A stretch of 64,000 nt of DNA from a bacterium (GTDB lineage Bacteria; Bacillota; Bacilli; Lactobacillales; Streptococcaceae). The notes beneath the pieces are model-generated. The model saw nothing but the letters and a program-made list of their open reading frames with translations. It ran no database searches and had not been told where the DNA came from. Below, piece after piece: positions 32,955-64,000 of the stretch. Positions within the stretch are counted from its first letter, which is position 1, and every line of letters begins with the position of its first letter. The stretch is from assembly GCA_905221145.1 (NCBI GenBank), contig CAJNCA010000002.1, forward strand, positions 350,217 to 414,216. Reading direction: 5' to 3'. The position numbers and the translations under genes are program-made.

Positions 32955-35501
32955 TTATTTAGTTCCGTATTGAAGAACAACTGCTTCCACTGCAGCTTTT
33001 TCGCGGTTAATCAAGTCAACACGCGCTGCAATTTCCTTGATTCCCATGCCGATATTACGGCTAAGAGCAAGATCAGAAAGTTGTGGCTCAAAGAACTCCT
33101 TGTATTCCGCCAAGCGTTGTTCTGTCTTAAATACATGAGCAGGAAGGATAACAAAGCTATCAAAGCTCATATCTCCACCAAGAGCTGCCTTGATCCAAGC
33201 CCAGTTTTCACGAGCCCAAGACCAAGCTGTTTCCTGAGTTGCTTGATGGTTTAAGAACTGGAAGTACCAAGCAGACAGGTCTTGTGGTTTGACCACAAAT
33301 TTGTCCTTCCAAGAAGCAATCAAGGTTTGGATATTGTCCGCATCTTTACTGTAGGCAAGAGCTGCTGCCAACTGACGTTTAAAGACAGCATCTGTTGCGT
33401 GCGTATAAGTATCAAGATAAAGTGCTAACAAGTCTTTGGTCTCATGATGTTTCATTTCATTGATGAGAACTTGTGAGCGAATGGCTGCTGGAAGTCCTGC
33501 AAGTTTCTGCTTGTGAGCCGCGAAGATTTGGCTAGCAACTTGACTAGCTTCTGCATCATTTGAGCGAATCATCATAGAAATGGCCAACTGACGAACCAAT
33601 TCATCCTCATCTGATTCTCCATCATTAGCTTCAAAACTAAGACGGTCATAGTTGTGACGAGCCAATTTAGCAACTAGTGCTTTGAAGGCTGTTTCAGCTT
33701 CTGTTCCTTCATCGATAAAGCGCTCAAGTGCAGAAATAACTTGAGAAACAGCTGAAACCACAAGGTAAGACTCTTCCTTGGCAAGTTTATCAAGGACTGG
33801 GAGCAAGTCAGCATAAGAAATGTGCCCTGCTTCAGCAAGCAAGCGACGTTCTTGGACGATTTGCAGTTTGCTTGTGTTATCAAGCTCAACTAGGTCAGCA
33901 AGAACAGCATCTAACAAGTCTCCTTGATAGTCTGTAATGTAGTGAGCTGTATTTTCAGTGTTTAGGCGAAGAGCACCTTTGTTTTCAGCAAGAAGAGCTG
34001 CATAGCCAGGGATTTCGATACTTTCAGTCTCAAGTGTATCAGGCAATCCTTTCCAGTTGCTGTTGAGTGGCACCACCCAGAAACGGTTCTTGTCTTCGTG
34101 CTCACCGATGAAGAATTGTTTTTGTGAAATCTTCAAGACATCATTTTTAACTTTGACAGTAAGAACTGGGTAACCAGGTTGTTCCAACCAAGAATCCATG
34201 AAGGCTGCGACATCACGTCCTGACGCTTTACCAAGGGCATCCCAAAGGTCACGACCAATTGTATTACTGTATTGGTGTTTTTCAAAGTAGGCATGCAAAC
34301 CTTTAGCGAAATCAGCATCTCCTAGCCAACGGCGAAGCATGTGCATGAGACGGCTTCCTTTGGCATAGACGATAGCCCCGTCAAAAAGCGTATTGATTTC
34401 ATCTGGGTGTTTGACTTCAACGTGAACAGACTGTACGCCATCCGTCGCGTCACGTTTCAAGGCAGACGGAACACCACCTGTTTGGAAATCTTCAAAGATA
34501 TTCCAGCTTGGCTCGATGGCATCCACACAGACGTACTCCATCATGTTGGCAAAACTTTCATTGAGCCAAAGATCATCCCACCATTTCATAGTCACGAGGT
34601 TACCAAACCATTGGTGAGCCAACTCATGGGCCACAACAAGGGCAACTTGTTGACGGCTGGCAAAGGTAGAGTTCTCATCCACAACCAAGTAAACTTCACG
34701 GTAGGTCACAAGACCCCAGTTTTCCATAGCTCCAGCTGAGAAGTCAGGAAGGGCGATGTGGAGAGATTGAGGGATTGGGTACTTGACTCCGTAGTAATCT
34801 TCGTAAAACTCGATAGAGCGAACAGCAATGTCCAGTGAGAAATCAAGGTTAGATAGTGGGTGGGCTTTGGTTGAGTAGACACCTACGAGGGTACCGTTTT
34901 TAGTTTTAGCCGTCACACCTTGCAAATCACCAGCAACAAAGGCCAACAAGTAAGAAGACATGCGAGGTGTTGTTTCAAACTTCCAAATACCTGTTTCTTT
35001 ACGGTTTTCAACATCAATCTCAGGCATGTTTGACAAGGCCAATTCACCTTCTGCTTGGTCAAAACGTAGAGAGAGGTCAAAAGTCGCTTTGGCTTCAGGC
35101 TCATCCACACACGGGAAGGCTTCGCGCGCAAAATGGCTCTCGAACTGAGTAGACAAGACTTCCTTCTTGACACCATCAACTGTGTAATAAGAAGGATAAA
35201 TCCCTGTCATGTTGTCTGTGATTTTACCAGAAAAGGTAAGAACCACTTCAACTTGACCAACCTCAGCCAATTCGATATGAAGGGCTTCATTTTCATGGTC
35301 AACTGTAAATGGACGAGCTTGACCTGCAACTTCTACAGAAGCGATTTCCAAGTCTTTTTGATGAAGGGAAATACGGTCACTCTGTGCTTGACCAGTAATG
35401 GTCACCTTCCCAGAAAACGTCTTGGCCTCACGACTCAAGTCTAAAAATAAATCATAATGTTCAGGAACAAATTGCTTAATAAAATGTTCAACTGCTTGCA
35501 T
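32955..35501 (-). CDS. pepN: Aminopeptidase N (M1 family)
   Basis: 848 aa zinc metallopeptidase. Exopeptidase motif GAMENWG near 256 and zinc site HELAHQWFG near 290, with the third ligand Glu in LNESFANMMEY 18 residues on. The C-terminal helical ERAP1-like domain is complete. Cytoplasmic; releases N-terminal amino acids from peptides. It has its own leader containing a 16-bp inverted repeat and ends in a terminator upstream of ciaR. Confidence 0.96.
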   Translation of the reverse strand: MQAVEHFIKQFVPEHYDLFLDLSREAKTFSGKVTITGQAQSDRISLHQKDLEIASVEVAGQARPFTVDHENEALHIELAEVGQVEVVLTFSGKITDNMTGIYPSYYTVDGVKKEVLSTQFESHFAREAFPCVDEPEAKATFDLSLRFDQAEGELALSNMPEIDVENRKETGIWKFETTPRMSSYLLAFVAGDLQGVTAKTKNGTLVGVYSTKAHPLSNLDFSLDIAVRSIEFYEDYYGVKYPIPQSLHIALPDFSAGAMENWGLVTYREVYLVVDENSTFASRQQVALVVAHELAHQWFGNLVTMKWWDDLWLNESFANMMEYVCVDAIEPSWNIFEDFQTGGVPSALKRDATDGVQSVHVEVKHPDEINTLFDGAIVYAKGSRLMHMLRRWLGDADFAKGLHAYFEKHQYSNTIGRDLWDALGKASGRDVAAFMDSWLEQPGYPVLTVKVKNDVLKISQKQFFIGEHEDKNRFWVVPLNSNWKGLPDTLETESIEIPGYAALLAENKGALRLNTENTAHYITDYQGDLLDAVLADLVELDNTSKLQIVQERRLLAEAGHISYADLLPVLDKLAKEESYLVVSAVSQVISALERFIDEGTEAETAFKALVAKLARHNYDRLSFEANDGESDEDELVRQLAISMMIRSNDAEASQVASQIFAAHKQKLAGLPAAIRSQVLINEMKHHETKDLLALYLDTYTHATDAVFKRQLAAALAYSKDADNIQTLIASWKDKFVVKPQDLSAWYFQFLNHQATQETAWSWARENWAWIKAALGGDMSFDSFVILPAHVFKTEQRLAEYKEFFEPQLSDLALSRNIGMGIKEIAARVDLINREKAAVEAVVLQYGTK

Positions 35502-35522
35502 AATTTTCTCCTATCTAAGTTT

Positions 35523-35538
35523 AAGAGCTAGAGCTCTT
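35523..35538 (-). repeat. Perfect inverted repeat in the pepN leader
   Basis: AAGAGCT-AG-AGCTCTT, between the -10 box (TATAAT, 35558-35553) and the pepN start. It may be an mRNA hairpin or an operator. Confidence 0.5.
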
Positions 35539-35625
35539 CTTCAAACAAACTTATTATATCATGTTTTGCCTAAGAAAAAAGGATTGGACGGCGATTTCCA
35601 AAACTTTCTTCCTTCTATTATCTGT

Positions 35626-36066
35626 CTACAGAGGGTAGACCTTGCGAAATTCTTCTAAAACAACCTTGCTATTAGGCGTAAAAGTCAGTCCTGCCTCCCT
35701 CATCCACTCGGTGAAACAGTCTTCATGAACCTGGCGCCAATAGGCTAAAGATTTGTCTCCTTCACCTTCCTTAAAGGCATGGTCCGCAGAAACTTGATTG
35801 AAAGGCTGAACGGAAACCTTGGTAATTTCGACAATGCAGACAGCCTGATTTTGACTATCTAAAATGACATCGAAGGTCCCTTTTTGTGGAAGAGGTTCGT
35901 CTTCTAGTGCGTAGAGGTCATAGGCTGAGGCGGTTGCAGTCTTTTCGCCTCTTAGAACCAAGTCTGCCAAGTGATCTGCTTCCACTCCAAAAGCCCAGGC
36001 ATCTATCTCATCTCCGATAGAAGGATTGATTTGCTTGTAGGCATTCCACATTTCTTGAGGTGTCAT
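35626..36066 (-). CDS. ASCH domain protein
   Basis: 146 aa. ASCH (PUA-like) fold: FGVEADHLADLVLRGEKTATASAYDLY is the GxKxxT-type core loop near 26-52, followed by VCIVEITKVSVQPF. Such domains bind RNA or modified nucleosides; some are N4-acetylcytidine amidohydrolases. Its ATG overlaps the PEP-domain gene stop as ATGA, the last gene of the Tad2-like operon. Confidence 0.88.
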   Translation of the reverse strand: MTPQEMWNAYKQINPSIGDEIDAWAFGVEADHLADLVLRGEKTATASAYDLYALEDEPLPQKGTFDVILDSQNQAVCIVEITKVSVQPFNQVSADHAFKEGEGDKSLAYWRQVHEDCFTEWMREAGLTFTPNSKVVLEEFRKVYPL

Positions 36067-36911
36067 GGGTTGCTCCTTTGTAATTTTTTACTTACTTCTT
36101 TTACACGTTTGAGGTGGTCTGGATGGTCAATCTCTAAATCAAAAATCTCTGGAATAGAACTATAGTGGATAATGCACTTGATACCAATCAGATTCATTTT
36201 TTGTATGAACGAAGTATTCAGATAACCTGCCACAGCAAAGTCTATCTTTTTCGTCCTTGCTTTATCCTGCATCTGTCTCAGCATATCTAACATTATTGGA
36301 CTTTCCATATCATGCCATTGACTATTTCTCACAGTCGCAAAAACAAAGGAAGTCAAATCATTCATTCCAACTACAATCTTTGAAATGCCCGTTTCCATTA
36401 TTCTGTCCAAGTCAAAATATGCTGACGGTAATTCAATCATCGTGCCAATTTTTCCAGTAAAACCATGCTGATGTAATACTGTAATAGTTTGCTCTAACTG
36501 CACAGCATCATTCACAAAAGGAAAAATAACAGACAGATTGGGATTGGTTTGATAAACTTCTGTAACGACATTTGCCTCAGCCTGAAATTCATCCAGACAC
36601 GCTAGTAAACGCCTAGTCCCTCTATAACCAAACAAAGGATGACGTTCGTCAAAATGCTGTTTTGTTCCATCTAAACAATTGGCTTCTGTATTCGTTAATT
36701 CAGAAAAACGATACCAGACTTCTTCATCTGAGTACAAGGAGCAGATAGTATCTAGATAATCTTTTACAAATTGCTGACAACTTGGTAATAGGATGTTTTG
36801 ATTGAGCTCTCTCAACAAATATTCCCCACGAATCATACCTATGTGGTGCAATAACTGAGGATAAATTTTTTCAAGAATTTTTTCGCCACTCAGAGCTAGT
36901 TGGTTTCTCAT
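36063..36911 (-). CDS. Stand-alone PEP-utiliser C-terminal (TIM barrel) domain
   Basis: 282 aa; starts at the second of two tandem ATGs (36911), which has the better spacing from AAGGTG. It resembles only the PEP/pyruvate-binding barrel of PPDK, PpsA or enzyme I: IGMIRGEYLL near 24, HPLFGYRGTRRL near 91, IGTMIELPSA near 155 and VVGMNDLTSF near 180. There is no phosphohistidine or ATP-grasp domain. The loop that should hold the catalytic Cys (usually GxCGE) reads VAGYLN. Probably binds a PEP-like ligand without phosphotransfer, or does something new. It overlaps the Nudix gene by 41 nt. Confidence 0.75.
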   Translation of the reverse strand: MRNQLALSGEKILEKIYPQLLHHIGMIRGEYLLRELNQNILLPSCQQFVKDYLDTICSLYSDEEVWYRFSELTNTEANCLDGTKQHFDERHPLFGYRGTRRLLACLDEFQAEANVVTEVYQTNPNLSVIFPFVNDAVQLEQTITVLHQHGFTGKIGTMIELPSAYFDLDRIMETGISKIVVGMNDLTSFVFATVRNSQWHDMESPIMLDMLRQMQDKARTKKIDFAVAGYLNTSFIQKMNLIGIKCIIHYSSIPEIFDLEIDHPDHLKRVKEVSKKLQRSNP

Positions 36912-37389
36912 CATTCACCTTCCAATTCATATACAAGGTCTTGTCCAGTTCTGGAAATCCTAATAATTCAGACTTAACCTTCAAGACTAATGGCGATGCA
37001 TTTTCTTCTGTGATTTTTTGAATATCCATCCAAACATATCCCAGTGAATCATTAACACCATCATAGATAGCTTCAGAAATAGTAACTTGAGGTGCCTCCT
37101 CATTCATTTCAACATCATACAATGCCATGATATGATGAACCATAAAATTTGTTAACTCTTCCCTGACGAAAACATCGTAGATTCGAGGATTGGAGTAGCT
37201 TCTAACAGTAAATCCTGTCTCTTCCATAACTTCTCTAATCAGCGTTTCCGTCAGTCCTTCACCAAGTTGCTGACTACCACCGGGAAGGTCTAACCTATTT
37301 TTGTAGAGACCTGCTGTTTTTTGAATACAAAGAAGGTAACCATGTTTATAGCAAACACCGTAGACTCCAAAGTGATTTTTGATTTCCAT
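36871..37389 (-). CDS. Nudix hydrolase
   Basis: 172 aa. A complete Nudix box lies at residues 37-60 (GGSQQLGE... then REVMEETGF). The leading FGVYGVCYKHGYLLCIQKTAG and the LPGG are typical of MutT/ADP-ribose-type Nudix enzymes, but the substrate cannot be read from sequence. Third gene of the Tad2-SDR-Nudix-PEP-ASCH operon; starts 10 nt after the SDR stop. Confidence 0.88.
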   Translation of the reverse strand: MEIKNHFGVYGVCYKHGYLLCIQKTAGLYKNRLDLPGGSQQLGEGLTETLIREVMEETGFTVRSYSNPRIYDVFVREELTNFMVHHIMALYDVEMNEEAPQVTISEAIYDGVNDSLGYVWMDIQKITEENASPLVLKVKSELLGFPELDKTLYMNWKVNDEKPTSSEWRKNS

Positions 37390-37399
37390 CCAACTACTC

Positions 37400-38098
37400 C
37401 TACTTCAAAGACCAGCCACCATCAATAGTCAATATTTGTCCTTGCATGGCGCTCGCTTTCCCACTTGCTAAGAAAAGGCTGATCTCTGCTACTTCCTCTG
37501 GCTCGATCCAGCGTTTGATTGGCGTTTCACTAGCCACCCAGTCCGCTAAGCCACCTGGCTCAAAGTCCGCAGCAGTCATACCCGTCTTGACGGCACCCGG
37601 AGCAATTCCAAAGACCTGAATCCCAGCTTCTGCATAGTCTAAAGCCAACTGCTTGGTAAATCCAGCCAAGGCGTGCTTCGAAGAAGTATAGGCGTGTCCA
37701 CCGCCACCAGCTAGGCTCGAAGCTATGGAGCACATATTGATAATAATTCCTTTTTTATTCTCCAGCATTTGTGTCAAATAATAACGAGTCAACTCAACAG
37801 GAGTCACATAGTTGATTTCAAAAATCTCTTGAATTTCCTGCGCCGTTTGTTCCAAAAGTGGTTTGTAATCATCCAAAACTCCAGCAGTATTGCACAAAAC
37901 ATCAACCTGAGGACACCAGTCAAAAATAGTCTCCAAGTCCAAGGTCAAATCTCTCTGTAAAAAGTGGAAATCACCCTGTAAAAGTGGATTTTCACCTTGG
38001 TCAATTCCATAAACTTGATAGCCATTCTCTAAAAAGAGGCAAGCTTGAGCTAATCCGATACCTGAGCTCACCCCTGTAATGAGTACACGTCTAGTCAT
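37400..38098 (-). CDS. Short-chain dehydrogenase/reductase
   Basis: 232 aa classical SDR. NAD(P)-binding TGVSSGIG near residues 8-15, CNTAGV near 88, catalytic Ser in INMCSIASSLAGGGG and YxxxK in AYTSSKHA near 155, and a C-terminal GQILTIDGGWSLK. Closest to 3-oxoacyl-ACP reductase-like SDRs of unknown substrate. Its ATG overlaps the Tad2-like gene by 8 nt. Confidence 0.9.
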   Translation of the reverse strand: MTRRVLITGVSSGIGLAQACLFLENGYQVYGIDQGENPLLQGDFHFLQRDLTLDLETIFDWCPQVDVLCNTAGVLDDYKPLLEQTAQEIQEIFEINYVTPVELTRYYLTQMLENKKGIIINMCSIASSLAGGGGHAYTSSKHALAGFTKQLALDYAEAGIQVFGIAPGAVKTGMTAADFEPGGLADWVASETPIKRWIEPEEVAEISLFLASGKASAMQGQILTIDGGWSLK

Positions 38099-38327
38099 GC
38101 ACTTCTACCCAATCTGTTGCCAAAACATCACAAGGTGTTGGGCTCCACATAGAAAAACCTTCTCCCTCCCCAGACACGTTGATTAGGAAATAGGGCGTCA
38201 CTTCAAGTGCAATCCCGTTTTGTTCAATGGTGTCAAAAAGTTGGACATAGTTTTCCGCCCCTCCCCAACCAGTACGTACATATTTTTTCTTAGCCTTTAA
38301 CCCAGGCAGGATTTCTTCAAATGTCAT
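38091..38327 (-). CDS. DUF2829 / Tad2-like protein
   Basis: 78 aa from the ATG at 38327 (AAAGGAG upstream). Sequence MTFEEILPGLKAKKKYVRTG, then WGGAENYVQLFD, PYFLINV and a terminal MWSPTPCDVLATDWVEV follow the DUF2829 pattern. The family includes phage Tad2, which sequesters cyclic ADP-ribose signals of Thoeris immunity. Here it is chromosomal, first gene of a five-gene operon. Whether it binds such nucleotides is not shown by the sequence. Confidence 0.85.
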   Translation of the reverse strand: MTFEEILPGLKAKKKYVRTGWGGAENYVQLFDTIEQNGIALEVTPYFLINVSGEGEGFSMWSPTPCDVLATDWVEVHD

Positions 38328-38360
38328 GTTATTCTCCTTTAATTCTACATTCTTCATTTA

Positions 38361-38366
38361 ATTATA
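38361..38366 (-). promoter_or_regulatory. Extended -10 box of the Tad2-like operon
   Basis: Minus-strand TGT-TATAAT directly after the upstream gene's terminator; no -35 is visible. Confidence 0.5.
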
Positions 38367-38368
38367 AC

Positions 38369-38394
38369 AAAAAACCGCTTTGCAACGGCTTTTT
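38369..38394 (-). terminator. Terminator of the PadR operon
   Basis: Minus strand AAAAAGCCG-TTGCAAAG-CGGTTTTTT. Confidence 0.75.
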
Positions 38395-38408
38395 GACTAT
38401 ATTTCACT

Positions 38409-39212
38409 TCATACTATCTTCTTAAACCCACGGAAAAAGAGAAAGATACCAATAAAGAGGACAGCTAAAGGAATGATTTTTGTGAGGAAAGTATTTGAAA
38501 TACCCATCCACTCATAGTAACGGAGCAGAGAACCTACAATAAGGTGGGCAACAATCATACTGTTAAAGGGACGAAAAACCGATTCTTTCCAATTCCAAAT
38601 ACTGATGACTAGGGAAATCGTAAAGACAGATAAACTATCCCAGGGAGCCGGAAGATTTAAGACTCCTTCTTGTATGAAACTTCCTATTCCTACATATCCT
38701 AGAACGACTAGCAGAACAAGAATTCCAACGACAATATAAGTGCCAATTTTCTTCTTAGGAGAATCTTGGACTAGCCCCCAACGTAAGATTGTGGCCACAA
38801 GTCCAAATCCAATCAGAAAAAGAATCAGTTGCCCTAAAAACGTGAGCAAATTAACTGTTAAGAGAGAGCCTTTCGAAAAATCGCTTAATAGTTGATAATA
38901 ACGTAATACCGCTAGGACAAGGATTGGCGTCAACAGTGACTCCTTGATAGAACTGCGTGGTGCTTCCTTGAGAATCTCTTTCATTATTTTTTTAGGATTC
39001 TTACCTAGATAATCCTCTGCACTCATACCATCTCGTTCTGCTTCTGAGAAATCTAGCATCATCAAATAGATCTGCTCTCTGAGGTAGTCTTCATCATAGA
39101 GAAATCCAGCAAGATTAAAACTTTCCCACAGCTCCTCAAAATACTGCTGATTGTTCTCAGAAAACTCATGCAACAAAGCGTTTGTTTCTTCATAATACTT
39201 CATTTTCTTCAT
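38409..39212 (-). CDS. PadR-associated membrane protein
   Basis: 267 aa. A soluble helical N-terminus (about 1-90; LREQIYLMMLDFSEAERDGMSAEDYLGKNPKKI) resembles the HAAS/DUF1048-like domain that accompanies PadR regulators. It is followed by about five membrane segments. It starts 3 nt after the PadR gene. Probably a partner or target of that regulator; molecular function unknown. Confidence 0.75.
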   Translation of the reverse strand: MKKMKYYEETNALLHEFSENNQQYFEELWESFNLAGFLYDEDYLREQIYLMMLDFSEAERDGMSAEDYLGKNPKKIMKEILKEAPRSSIKESLLTPILVLAVLRYYQLLSDFSKGSLLTVNLLTFLGQLILFLIGFGLVATILRWGLVQDSPKKKIGTYIVVGILVLLVVLGYVGIGSFIQEGVLNLPAPWDSLSVFTISLVISIWNWKESVFRPFNSMIVAHLIVGSLLRYYEWMGISNTFLTKIIPLAVLFIGIFLFFRGFKKIV

Positions 39213-39669: not shown

Positions 39670-41667
39670 TTACCCAATCACACTTCCGTTTGGTACAGCT
39701 GGATCAACTGTAAGAAGGGTTAATTTTCCATCATGTTCAGCTGAGAGAATCATCCCTTGGCTGACATATTTCTTCATCATCTTACGCGGTTTGAGGTTGG
39801 CAACGATTTGGACTTTCTTGCCAACCAATTCTTGTTCATTTGGATAGTACTTCGCAATTCCTGAAAGGATTTGACGGTCTTCACCATCACCTGCATCTAG
39901 GCGGAATTGAAGCAACTTATCAGAACCTTCTACTTTGGAAACTTCTTTGACTTCTGCAACACGAATTTCAACCTTGTCAAAGTCTTCAAACTTAATTTCT
40001 TCCTTGTTTAGTTTGAGTTCGACTTCGTCTGGATTCCATTCTTTTTCGACTGCTGGTTTGTTGCCTTCCATTTGTTCCTTGATATAGGCGATTTCTTCTT
40101 CCATATCCAGACGTGGGAAAATTGGAGTTCCTTTGGCAACTACAGTCACATCTGCTGGGAAGTCAGCCAAGCTCAAGTTTTCAAGGCTCGCTACTTCTTC
40201 CAAGCCAAGTTGAGTCAAGACTGCACGACTGGTTTCCATCATAAACGGCTCAATCAAGTGAGCTACAACACGAAGGCTGGCTGCCAAGTGGCTCATAACA
40301 CTTGCCAATTGGTCACGATGCGCTTCATCCTTAGCCAAGACCCATGGAGCTGTCTCGTCGATGTATTTATTAGTACGAGAGATAAGCGTCCAGACCGCTT
40401 CAAGTGCACGTGGGTAATCAACTGCTTCCATGTGTGTATGGTAGTCAGCGATTGATTCAGCAGCTACTTGAGCAAGAGCATGGTCAAACTCTGTTACACC
40501 TTCTACATAGGCAGGAATTTGCCCATCAAAGTACTTGTTAATCATAGAAACCGTACGGTTGAGGAGGTTTCCAAGGTCGTTGGCCAATTCATAGTTAATA
40601 CGGCCAACATAGTCTTCAGGAGTGAAGGTTCCGTCTGAACCAACTGGAAGGCTACGCATGAGGTAGTAACGAAGCGGATCAAGCCCATAACGCTCTACCA
40701 ACATTTCAGGGTAAACAACATTTCCTTTAGACTTAGACATCTTGCCGTCTTTCATGACAAACCAACCATGGGCAATCAAACGATCTGGTAATTTGATATC
40801 CAACATCATCAGAAGGATTGGCCAGTAGATTGAGTGGAAACGAAGAATGTCTTTTCCTACCATATGGAAGACAGTTCCATTCCAGAACTTGTCAAAGTTA
40901 CCATGTTCGTCTTGACCATAGCCAAGAGCTGTCGCATAGTTAAGAAGGGCATCAATCCAAACATAGACAACGTGTTTTGGATTAGATGGTACTGGAACAC
41001 CCCATGTAAAGGTTGTACGAGAAACAGCCAAGTCTTCCAAACCTGGTTCGATGAAGTTGCGGAGCATTTCATTAAGACGACCATCAGGAGTGATAAATTC
41101 AGGATGGGATTTAAAAAATTCGACCAAACGATCTTGGTATTTGCTGAGGCGGAGGAAGTATGATTCTTCAGATACCCATTCAACCTCATGACCTGATGGA
41201 GCGATACCTCCAGTCACATTTCCAGCTTCGTCACGGAAAACTTCTGCAAGTTGACTTTCTGTAAAAAATTCCTCATCTGAGACTGAATACCAGCCAGAGT
41301 ATTCACCTAGGTAGATGTCATCTTGAGCCAGCAAGCGTTCAAAGACCTGCGCCACTACCTTTTCATGGTAATCATCCGTTGTGCGGATAAATTTATCATA
41401 AGAGATATCTAGTAATTGCCAGAGTTCTTTGACTCCAACAGCCATACCATCAACGTAGGATTGAGGTGTGATACCAGCTTCTTCAGCTTTTTGCTGGATT
41501 TTCTGACCATGCTCATCAAGACCTGTCAGATAAAAGACATCGTAGCCCATGAGGCGTTTGTAGCGAGCTAGGACATCACAGGCGATGGTTGTGTAGGCAG
41601 AACCGATATGAAGTTTACCAGATGGATAGTAAATCGGCGTTGTAATATAAAAATTCTTTTCAGACAT
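39670..41667 (-). CDS. metG: Methionyl-tRNA synthetase
   Basis: 665 aa from the ATG at 41667 (AAAGGA upstream). Class I signature HIGSAYTT (HIGH variant) near 19, [10 protein letters not shown] near 300, an anticodon-binding helical domain, and a C-terminal EMAP/Trbp111-like tRNA-binding domain (about 560-665). No zinc-knuckle cysteines are visible in the CP domain. No T-box leader. Monocistronic. Confidence 0.97.
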
Positions 41668-41754
41668 AATTTTTCCTTTCCAGGCAAATGAAACCTGTTT
41701 TTCTAACACTTCATTATATCACATTTTTAATGATTTTCGATAGGGAAATCCATA

Positions 41755-63924: not shown

Positions 63925-63974
63925 GGCTCTATAATATTTGTAGTGGGTAAATCCCCTATAGATATTATGGAGCC
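63925..63974. mobile_element. Possible insertion-sequence terminus at the window edge
   Basis: GGCTCTATAATATTTGTAG (63925-63943) and its imperfect reverse complement CTATAGATATTATGGAGCC (63956-63974), four mismatches in 19, around GTGGGTAAATCC-type sequence. The GGCTCTATAATATT start resembles ends of streptococcal ISL3-family elements as I remember them. No transposase is within the window, so this is tentative. Confidence 0.35.
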
Positions 63975-64000
63975 TATTTTTGTGTAGAAAAAAAGTCCCA

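What the first reader, a model, noticed from the sequence alone, without database searches (positions are those of the whole stretch)
35626..38327. Chromosomal Tad2-like (DUF2829) gene leads a compact five-gene operon of unknown purpose
Seen: DUF2829/Tad2-like, SDR, Nudix, PEP-utiliser-C-like and ASCH genes run in one direction with overlaps of 8, 41 and 4 nt and a 10-nt gap. An extended -10 box sits just upstream of the first gene. Known: the DUF2829 family includes phage Tad2, which sponges cyclic ADP-ribose signals; Nudix enzymes often hydrolyse ADP-ribose derivatives; ASCH domains bind RNA or modified nucleosides. Inference: the operon may bind, hydrolyse or reduce an unusual nucleotide, either as metabolite repair or as a brake on NAD-derived signalling. 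No Thoeris genes are present in the window.
Basis: partly seen in the sequence, partly recalled or inferred. Interest (0 to 1): 0.72.

Follow-up and report, generated by a model that had tools for sequence, protein, structure and literature searches.

The report
Tad2-like gene beside queuosine-precursor transporter
A small streptococcal protein that folds like a phage anti-defence sponge is half of an old two-gene pair that, in relatives, usually sits beside a predicted riboswitch-controlled importer of queuosine precursors, so it probably helps bacteria salvage a tRNA building block rather than block immune signals.

Summary
The five genes, overlaps and extended -10 box are real, and the 78-aa protein is a true Tad2 homologue by sequence and predicted fold. 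The five-gene operon is not a conserved unit. Only DUF2829-SDR is fixed: 20 of 20 streptococcal loci mapped (hand-picked), 83 of 83 intact loci from other Lactobacillales. Nudix and PEP-C are cargo of a variable slot; PEP-C occurs in 50 of 147 streptococcal genomes. In 61 of the 83 loci the pair lies in line with a QueT-family (queuosine-precursor) transporter gene. A covarying preQ1-II-type leader was found in 62 of 85 loci; in 4 of 4 Lactococcus loci, between SDR and QueT, Rfam's preQ1-II model scores far above its cut-off. Streptococcus keeps the pair but has QueT elsewhere. Of 40 QueT sampled from non-streptococcal DUF2829-negative genomes, none falls in the clade of the pair's QueT. Best explanation: DUF2829-SDR is a 7-deazaguanine salvage module, with an NAD-type dehydrogenase and a Tad2-fold base or nucleotide binder. 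The pathway link is well supported; the chemistry is inferred. A brake on NAD-derived immune signalling is not supported (ThsB in 7 of 147 genomes; pocket residues E25 and C66 differ from phage Tad2).

The parts
38361..38369 (-). extended -10 promoter element TGTTATAAT
   Evidence: read from the sequence; consensus only, not a test of function
38368..38395 (-). intrinsic-terminator-like hairpin closing the upstream gene
   Evidence: pattern scan (5 such sites found in the region scanned, 2.5 expected in shuffles)
38091..38327 (-). DUF2829 / Tad2-like protein, 78 aa; first gene of the conserved pair
   Evidence: Pfam PF11195 5.9e-19 (on the 88-aa ORF); AF2 pLDDT 94.8, Tad2 fold
37400..38098 (-). 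SDR dehydrogenase, 232 aa, NAD(H)-type (Asp33); second gene of the conserved pair, 8-nt overlap with DUF2829
   Evidence: NCBIfam NF005118 393.9 bits, cut-off 270; D33, S124, Y137, K141 each 86 of 86; adjacent in 83 of 83 intact non-streptococcal loci
36871..37389 (-). Nudix hydrolase, 172 aa; variable-slot cargo
   Evidence: Pfam 1.5e-7; 63 of 147 genomes at E <= 1e-20
36063..36914 (-). stand-alone PEP-utiliser C-terminal barrel, 283 aa, PEP-site residues kept, catalytic Cys position Ala; variable-slot cargo
   Evidence: Pfam 7.8e-19; alignment of 121; 50 of 147 genomes
35626..36066 (-). ASCH-domain protein, 146 aa; right edge of the variable slot
   Evidence: Pfam 3.5e-29; 128 of 147 genomes
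39670..41709 (-). metG, two genes upstream of DUF2829; marks synteny with the Lactococcus locus
   Evidence: ORF; metG precedes DUF2829 also in L330 and L334 (Lactococcus)

Best explanation
The functional unit is not the five-gene operon but its first two genes, DUF2829 (Tad2 fold) plus an NAD(H)-type SDR, an old adjacent pair of Lactobacillales and some Bacillales. It works with the ECF-transporter S component QueT in salvage of queuosine precursors (7-deazaguanines). SHOWN: the pair is conserved; outside Streptococcus it mostly lies in line with a QueT gene of one particular QueT clade; a preQ1-II-type leader precedes that QueT in most; in 5 loci QueT, DUF2829 and SDR form one tight gene string in that order. 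INFERRED: QueT imports preQ1 or queuine/Q; the SDR oxidises or reduces a salvage intermediate; DUF2829 uses its Tad2-like inter-subunit pocket to hold the 7-deazaguanine base (or the SDR's nucleotide cofactor) and delivers it to, or forms a complex with, the SDR. In Streptococcus the pair kept its place near metG while QueT lies elsewhere, and the space behind the SDR became an insertion slot that here holds Nudix and PEP-C, closed by ASCH.
For: Pair: all 85 non-streptococcal DUF2829 loci of a 295-genome Lactobacillales draw were fetched. 83 have an intact DUF2829 ORF; 83 of 83 have the SDR on the same strand within 300 nt; 61 of 83 have QueT in line within 400 nt (56 DUF-SDR-QueT, 5 QueT-DUF-SDR with gaps of -4 to 16 nt); 3 more have QueT in the locus. 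QueT identity: Pfam PF06177, E 1.8e-37 to 9.3e-35, 3 of 3 tested. Leader: in 19 elements both helices covary (64 double-change cells against 18.9 in shuffles; 99.4% of cells paired against 33-57% when slid). The model built from them finds 62 of 85 loci (19 by construction, 43 of the other 66, some of these close to the training rows), then 13 of 29 named loci not used in building: 8 of 8 Bacillales genera, 4 of 4 Lactococcus, 1 of 1 Streptococcaceae MAG, 0 of 2 Floricoccus, 0 of 14 Streptococcus. Rfam's own preQ1-II model scores 75.9-79.3 bits (cut-off 47) between SDR and QueT in the 4 Lactococcus loci and 68.2 in the MAG, and 72.5 and 96.8 upstream of QueT in 2 of 3 streptococcal QueT loci. 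QueT clade: 64 rows = 61 from DUF2829 loci + 3 streptococcal; 0 of 40 QueT from non-streptococcal DUF2829-negative genomes lie in it. In 3 of those 40 loci QueT is followed directly by a related SDR without DUF2829. Named loci: 52 of 63 non-streptococcal ones have QueT in the fetched stretch; many of these are the same genomes as in the first set, but Lactococcus and Bacillales are new. SDR: Asp33 86 of 86, the NAD-type position (recalled rule).
Against: In 19 of 83 loci no QueT lies near, nor in any of the 17 named Streptococcus loci. Twelve Streptococcus genomes without DUF2829 all keep tgt and 11 of 12 keep QueT; the QueT of one of them (G114, L190) falls in the pair's QueT clade, so that clade does not track DUF2829 inside Streptococcus. 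Of 23 genomes without tgt the 20 listed lack DUF2829, but they are mostly one family code, f9. The leader lies behind the SDR in the usual order, so it would control QueT and not directly the pair. Rfam's model listed the leader in only 2 of 8 non-streptococcal loci even at E <= 10, and the preQ1-I-like leaders that I see in three QueT-first loci are by eye only: the relaxed Rfam search of L113 did not list one. In the careful tree the 64-row grouping has only 89/72 support (SH-aLRT 96 in the quick tree); four QueT from DUF2829 loci (L113, L181, L186, L187) fall outside it. Only one QueT per DUF2829-negative genome was sampled. No step of the chemistry was tested.
Confidence: 0.63

Rival explanations
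1. DUF2829 is a chromosomal Tad2-type sponge that binds cyclic ADP-ribose signals and damps NAD-derived (Thoeris-like) immunity; the SDR and the other genes are bystanders.
For: Tad2 fold and family; W21, G23, P63, D67, L69, A70, D72, W73 shared with SPO1 and Myroides Tad2. The two streptococcal genomes with a broken DUF2829 (G060, G015; 2 of 135) are among the 7 of 147 with a ThsB-like gene.
Against: ThsB-like gene in 7 of 147, DUF2829 in 135 of 147 genomes. Of 12 genomes checked for STALD (ThsA), G060 has none, and STALD-positive G001, G004 and G137 (the last with a stop in its STALD frame) keep an intact DUF2829. SDR adjacency in 83 of 83 and QueT linkage are unexplained. E25 and C66 differ in all 5 phage or prophage relatives compared and E56 in 4 of 5.
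Confidence: 0.1
2. DUF2829 is simply a cofactor-binding or regulatory subunit of the SDR in some other pathway; the QueT neighbourhood is an inherited accident of gene order.
For: DUF2829-SDR adjacency is stricter (83 of 83) than QueT adjacency (61 of 83); Tad2 pockets bind ADP-ribose compounds (PMC12043709, passages read) and the SDR is NAD-type; the pair persists in Streptococcus away from QueT.
Against: QueT linkage recurs in both orders, in Bacillales as well as Lactobacillales; in 3 loci a related SDR follows QueT without DUF2829; outside Streptococcus the QueT clade tracks DUF2829.
Confidence: 0.19
3. The five genes form one dedicated pathway for nucleotide or metabolite repair.
For: Overlapping genes, and promoter-like sites no more frequent than chance in 35400-38700 (9 found, 7.1 expected).
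Against: Nudix and PEP-C present in 63 and 50 of 147 genomes; the slot holds other genes (GNAT, alpha/beta hydrolase, AbiH, SUKH-like genes, up to 26 ORFs) in other strains, and several PEP-C copies are broken.
Confidence: 0.04

Closest known systems
Tad2 (Thoeris anti-defence 2; SPO1 Tad2 8smf, ModTad2 9eib, HgmTad2/AcrIIA7)
   Different: Chromosomal, paired with an SDR, queuosine-transporter context; E25 and C66 conserved where the 5 phage or prophage relatives have other residues; ligand unknown
QueT/QrtT ECF transporters under preQ1 riboswitches
   Same: The pair's neighbour is PF06177 QueT with a preQ1-II-type leader
   Different: No DUF2829-SDR partner was met in the passages read on QueT and QrtT; the rest of those papers was not read
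C. difficile QrtT/QueK/QueL queuine salvage, from PMC11130926 passages
   Same: Two precursor transporters of different specificity; 59 of the 85 non-streptococcal DUF2829 genomes likewise have two or more QueT matches
   Different: QueL and QueK are other protein families (recalled); here the linked enzyme is an SDR
preQ1-II riboswitch RF01054
   Same: Two covarying stems, TCCTTT/AAAGGA pseudoknot over the Shine-Dalgarno sequence, upstream of queT
   Different: In the other Lactobacillales and in Bacillales Rfam's model scores it below its cut-off (27-42 bits where listed), so it is a divergent form

Membership tests
Tad2 (as a protein family/fold) | PF11195 sequence match and Tad2 fold | tested here: met
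Tad2 (as an anti-Thoeris sponge) | sequesters gcADPR-type signals | not testable with these tools
   needs binding assay
Tad2 (as an anti-Thoeris sponge) | carried by phage or prophage | tested here: not met
   conserved gene at one chromosomal place in Streptococcus (135 of 147 genomes); the 70 phage records that match are all under 60% identity
Tad2 (as an anti-Thoeris sponge) | ligand-loop residues as in SPO1/Myroides Tad2 | tested here: inconclusive
   core W21, P63, D67, D72 shared; E25 and C66 differ in 5 of 5, E56 in 4 of 5; the contact residues themselves were not read from the structures
preQ1-II riboswitch (element between SDR and QueT, Lactococcus and one Streptococcaceae MAG) | RF01054 above gathering score | tested here: met
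   68.2-79.3 bits, cut-off 47, 5 of 5 loci
preQ1-II riboswitch (element between SDR and QueT, other Lactobacillales and Bacillales) | RF01054 above gathering score | tested here: not met
   none in L103-L122; 27-42 bits where listed
preQ1-II riboswitch (element between SDR and QueT) | covarying helices and SD pseudoknot | tested here: met
   helices covary; the pseudoknot strands never vary and so are not tested by covariation
preQ1-II riboswitch (element between SDR and QueT) | binds preQ1 | not testable with these tools
   needs in-line probing or ITC
Queuosine-precursor salvage component (DUF2829-SDR) | gene linkage to a Q-precursor transporter | tested here: met
   61 of 83 loci; 52 of 63 named non-streptococcal loci, sets overlap; 0 of 17 in Streptococcus
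Queuosine-precursor salvage component (DUF2829-SDR) | lost together with tgt | tested here: inconclusive
   no DUF2829 in the 20 listed of 23 tgt-minus genomes, but these are related; 12 of 12 DUF2829-minus streptococci keep tgt
SDR 3-oxoacyl-ACP reductase (NF005118 name) | acts on 3-oxoacyl-ACP | not tested
   name only; cofactor position Asp33 suggests NAD(H)

The most novel reading that the evidence does not exclude
DUF2829-SDR is a non-radical route from queuine (or Q) back to preQ1: the NAD-type SDR oxidises the cyclopentenediol so that the amine-linked 7-deazaguanine is released by beta-elimination, while the Tad2-fold subunit holds the 7-deazaguanine. Phage Tad2 sponges would then descend from a queuosine-salvage protein captured from hosts.
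Probability: 0.1. Interest if true: 0.88.

Novelty: new variant of a known kind. Interest (0 to 1): 0.65.

Why it matters
It gives a function-bearing genomic context to a widespread chromosomal branch of the Tad2 family, names a candidate SDR and binding protein for queuosine-precursor salvage in lactococci, enterococci and streptococci, and suggests where an anti-immunity sponge fold may have come from. It also shows that preQ1-II-type leaders occur well beyond Streptococcaceae. All of this can be tested with a two-gene deletion and tRNA analysis.

Full report
OBSERVATION. The five genes are where the finding says, on the minus strand, with overlaps of 8, 41 (or 44) and 4 nt and a 10-nt gap. 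The extended -10 TGTTATAAT (38369-38361) follows directly on a terminator-like hairpin of the gene upstream, so transcription very likely starts just before DUF2829. Domain assignments are sound. The window is a mitis-group Streptococcus by its protein matches; its assembly is not held, and the nearest genome held shares 28% of its words.

THE FIVE-GENE OPERON IS ONE STATE OF A VARIABLE LOCUS. In 147 Streptococcus genomes DUF2829 is found in 135, the SDR in 136, ASCH in 128, Nudix in 63 and PEP-C in 50. In 20 of 20 loci mapped (L061-L080, chosen by hand) DUF2829 and the SDR are adjacent at the left edge and ASCH closes the right edge. Between SDR and ASCH lie Nudix plus PEP-C, Nudix plus GNAT plus PEP-C, GNAT plus alpha/beta hydrolase, AbiH plus GNAT, a single short ORF, or strings of up to 26 small ORFs (L064), two of three tested being SUKH-like below Pfam's cut-off. 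So the first two genes and ASCH are the stable parts; Nudix and PEP-C are cargo.

ITS PARTNER. I fetched all 85 non-streptococcal loci that the order-wide search found (129 of 295 genomes positive, 44 of them Streptococcus). Two have a broken DUF2829. Of the 83 others, 83 have the SDR next to it on the same strand, and 61 have a QueT gene in line, 56 as DUF2829-SDR-QueT and 5 as QueT-DUF2829-SDR; 3 have QueT further off and 19 have none in the stretch. QueT was verified with Pfam in 3 of 3 tested. A set with names (80 loci, many of them the same genomes) gave 52 of 63 non-streptococcal loci with QueT, among them Enterococcus, Tetragenococcus, Lactococcus, Lysinibacillus, Sporosarcina, Virgibacillus and Amphibacillus, and 0 of 17 in Streptococcus. 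In Lactococcus petauri and L. formosensis the locus follows metG, as it does two genes on in this window, so the streptococcal pair looks like the syntenic remnant of metG - DUF2829-SDR-preQ1-II-QueT.

THE LEADER. Rfam at its own cut-offs found none in L103-L122, but the gap between SDR and QueT holds a conserved element. In 19 sequences its two helices covary. An invariant TCCTTT/AAAGGA pairing covers the Shine-Dalgarno sequence. A covariance model finds 62 of 85 loci, 43 of them not used to build it. It also finds a known streptococcal preQ1-II (L189, 34.9 bits; not L188 or L190) and three other QueT leaders, L215, L220 and L229, and 13 of 29 further named loci. Rfam's preQ1-II model in turn scores 75.9-79.3 bits in 4 of 4 Lactococcus loci between SDR and QueT, but only 41.7 and 27.0 bits (cut-off 47) in 2 of 8 other loci and nothing in the remaining 6. 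In L106 and L112 the leader starts 7 and 9 nt behind the SDR stop, which leaves no room for a promoter, so a shared transcript is likely there. Of the five QueT-DUF2829-SDR loci, L134 has the preQ1-II-type leader by the model (it is a training row); L113, L181 and L186 look preQ1-I-like by eye, but a relaxed Rfam search of L113 did not list it. A 2024 review says that class II riboswitches are primarily from Streptococcaceae and Lactococcus (PMC11625349, passages).

QUET CLADES. Of the 85 non-streptococcal genomes with DUF2829, 59 have two or more QueT matches (counted). The unlinked one, with a preQ1-I leader at E below 0.01 in 7 of 19 loci, forms a clade with 30 of 40 QueT from DUF2829-negative genomes. 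The linked one plus three streptococcal QueT form a clade with 0 of those 40 (weaker support). Two limits: one of the three streptococcal rows (L190, G114) is from a genome without DUF2829, and four linked QueT fall outside the clade. In L228, L231 and L258, counted DUF2829-negative, QueT is followed by a related SDR without DUF2829, which makes the SDR the enzyme most tightly tied to QueT.

MECHANISM. The SDR keeps S124, Y137 and K141 and the NAD-type Asp33 in 86 of 86; FabG-like reductases usually prefer NADPH (recalled). I therefore favour an NAD-dependent step on an imported 7-deazaguanine compound, with DUF2829 as base or nucleotide binder. That one transporter of a pair can take preQ1, queuine and Q while the other takes only preQ1 is reported for C. 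difficile QrtT (PMC11130926, passages). The exact substrate and direction are inference.

LIMITS. The pair is dispensable for tgt-carrying streptococci; 19 of 83 loci have no QueT near; sampling is one genome per species and phylogenetically clumped; no binding or enzyme data exist here.

Noticed in passing
window 36063-36914: Stand-alone PEP-utiliser C barrel keeps the PEP-site residues (R29, R69, E161, N185, R196 in 121 of 121; D186 in 120) but has Ala (119 of 121) at the position of the catalytic Cys of enzyme I: looks like a conserved PEP-binding pseudoenzyme or PEP sensor (site numbers recalled from E. coli enzyme I).
   Followed up: partly
SDR-ASCH slot; L061, L062, L064, L071, L078: Insertion hotspot with AbiH, GNAT, alpha/beta hydrolase and long strings of small, partly SUKH-like genes between the SDR and ASCH genes.
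   Followed up: partly
L103-L187, SDR-QueT gaps: Divergent preQ1-II-type leaders outside Streptococcaceae that Rfam's model misses at its cut-off.
   Followed up: yes
G060 (L033) and G015 (L198): The only two of 135 streptococcal DUF2829 matches with a stop inside lie in two of the seven genomes with a ThsB-like gene; may be chance.
   Followed up: partly
L228, L231, L258: QueT followed directly by a related SDR without DUF2829.
   Followed up: partly
L281 (Listeria phage A511 gp64), L282 (Kosakonia phage Kc263): A Tad2-like gene sits among tRNA genes of a large Listeria phage; a 254-kb Kosakonia phage also has one.
   Followed up: no
Streptococcus suis (literature): A DUF2829 protein is listed with a ratio of 1.6 in an expression table of a ModS phase-variation study (PMC8125046, one passage).
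   Followed up: no
window 63925-64000: Rfam sRNA Srn266 cut by the window end.
   Followed up: no
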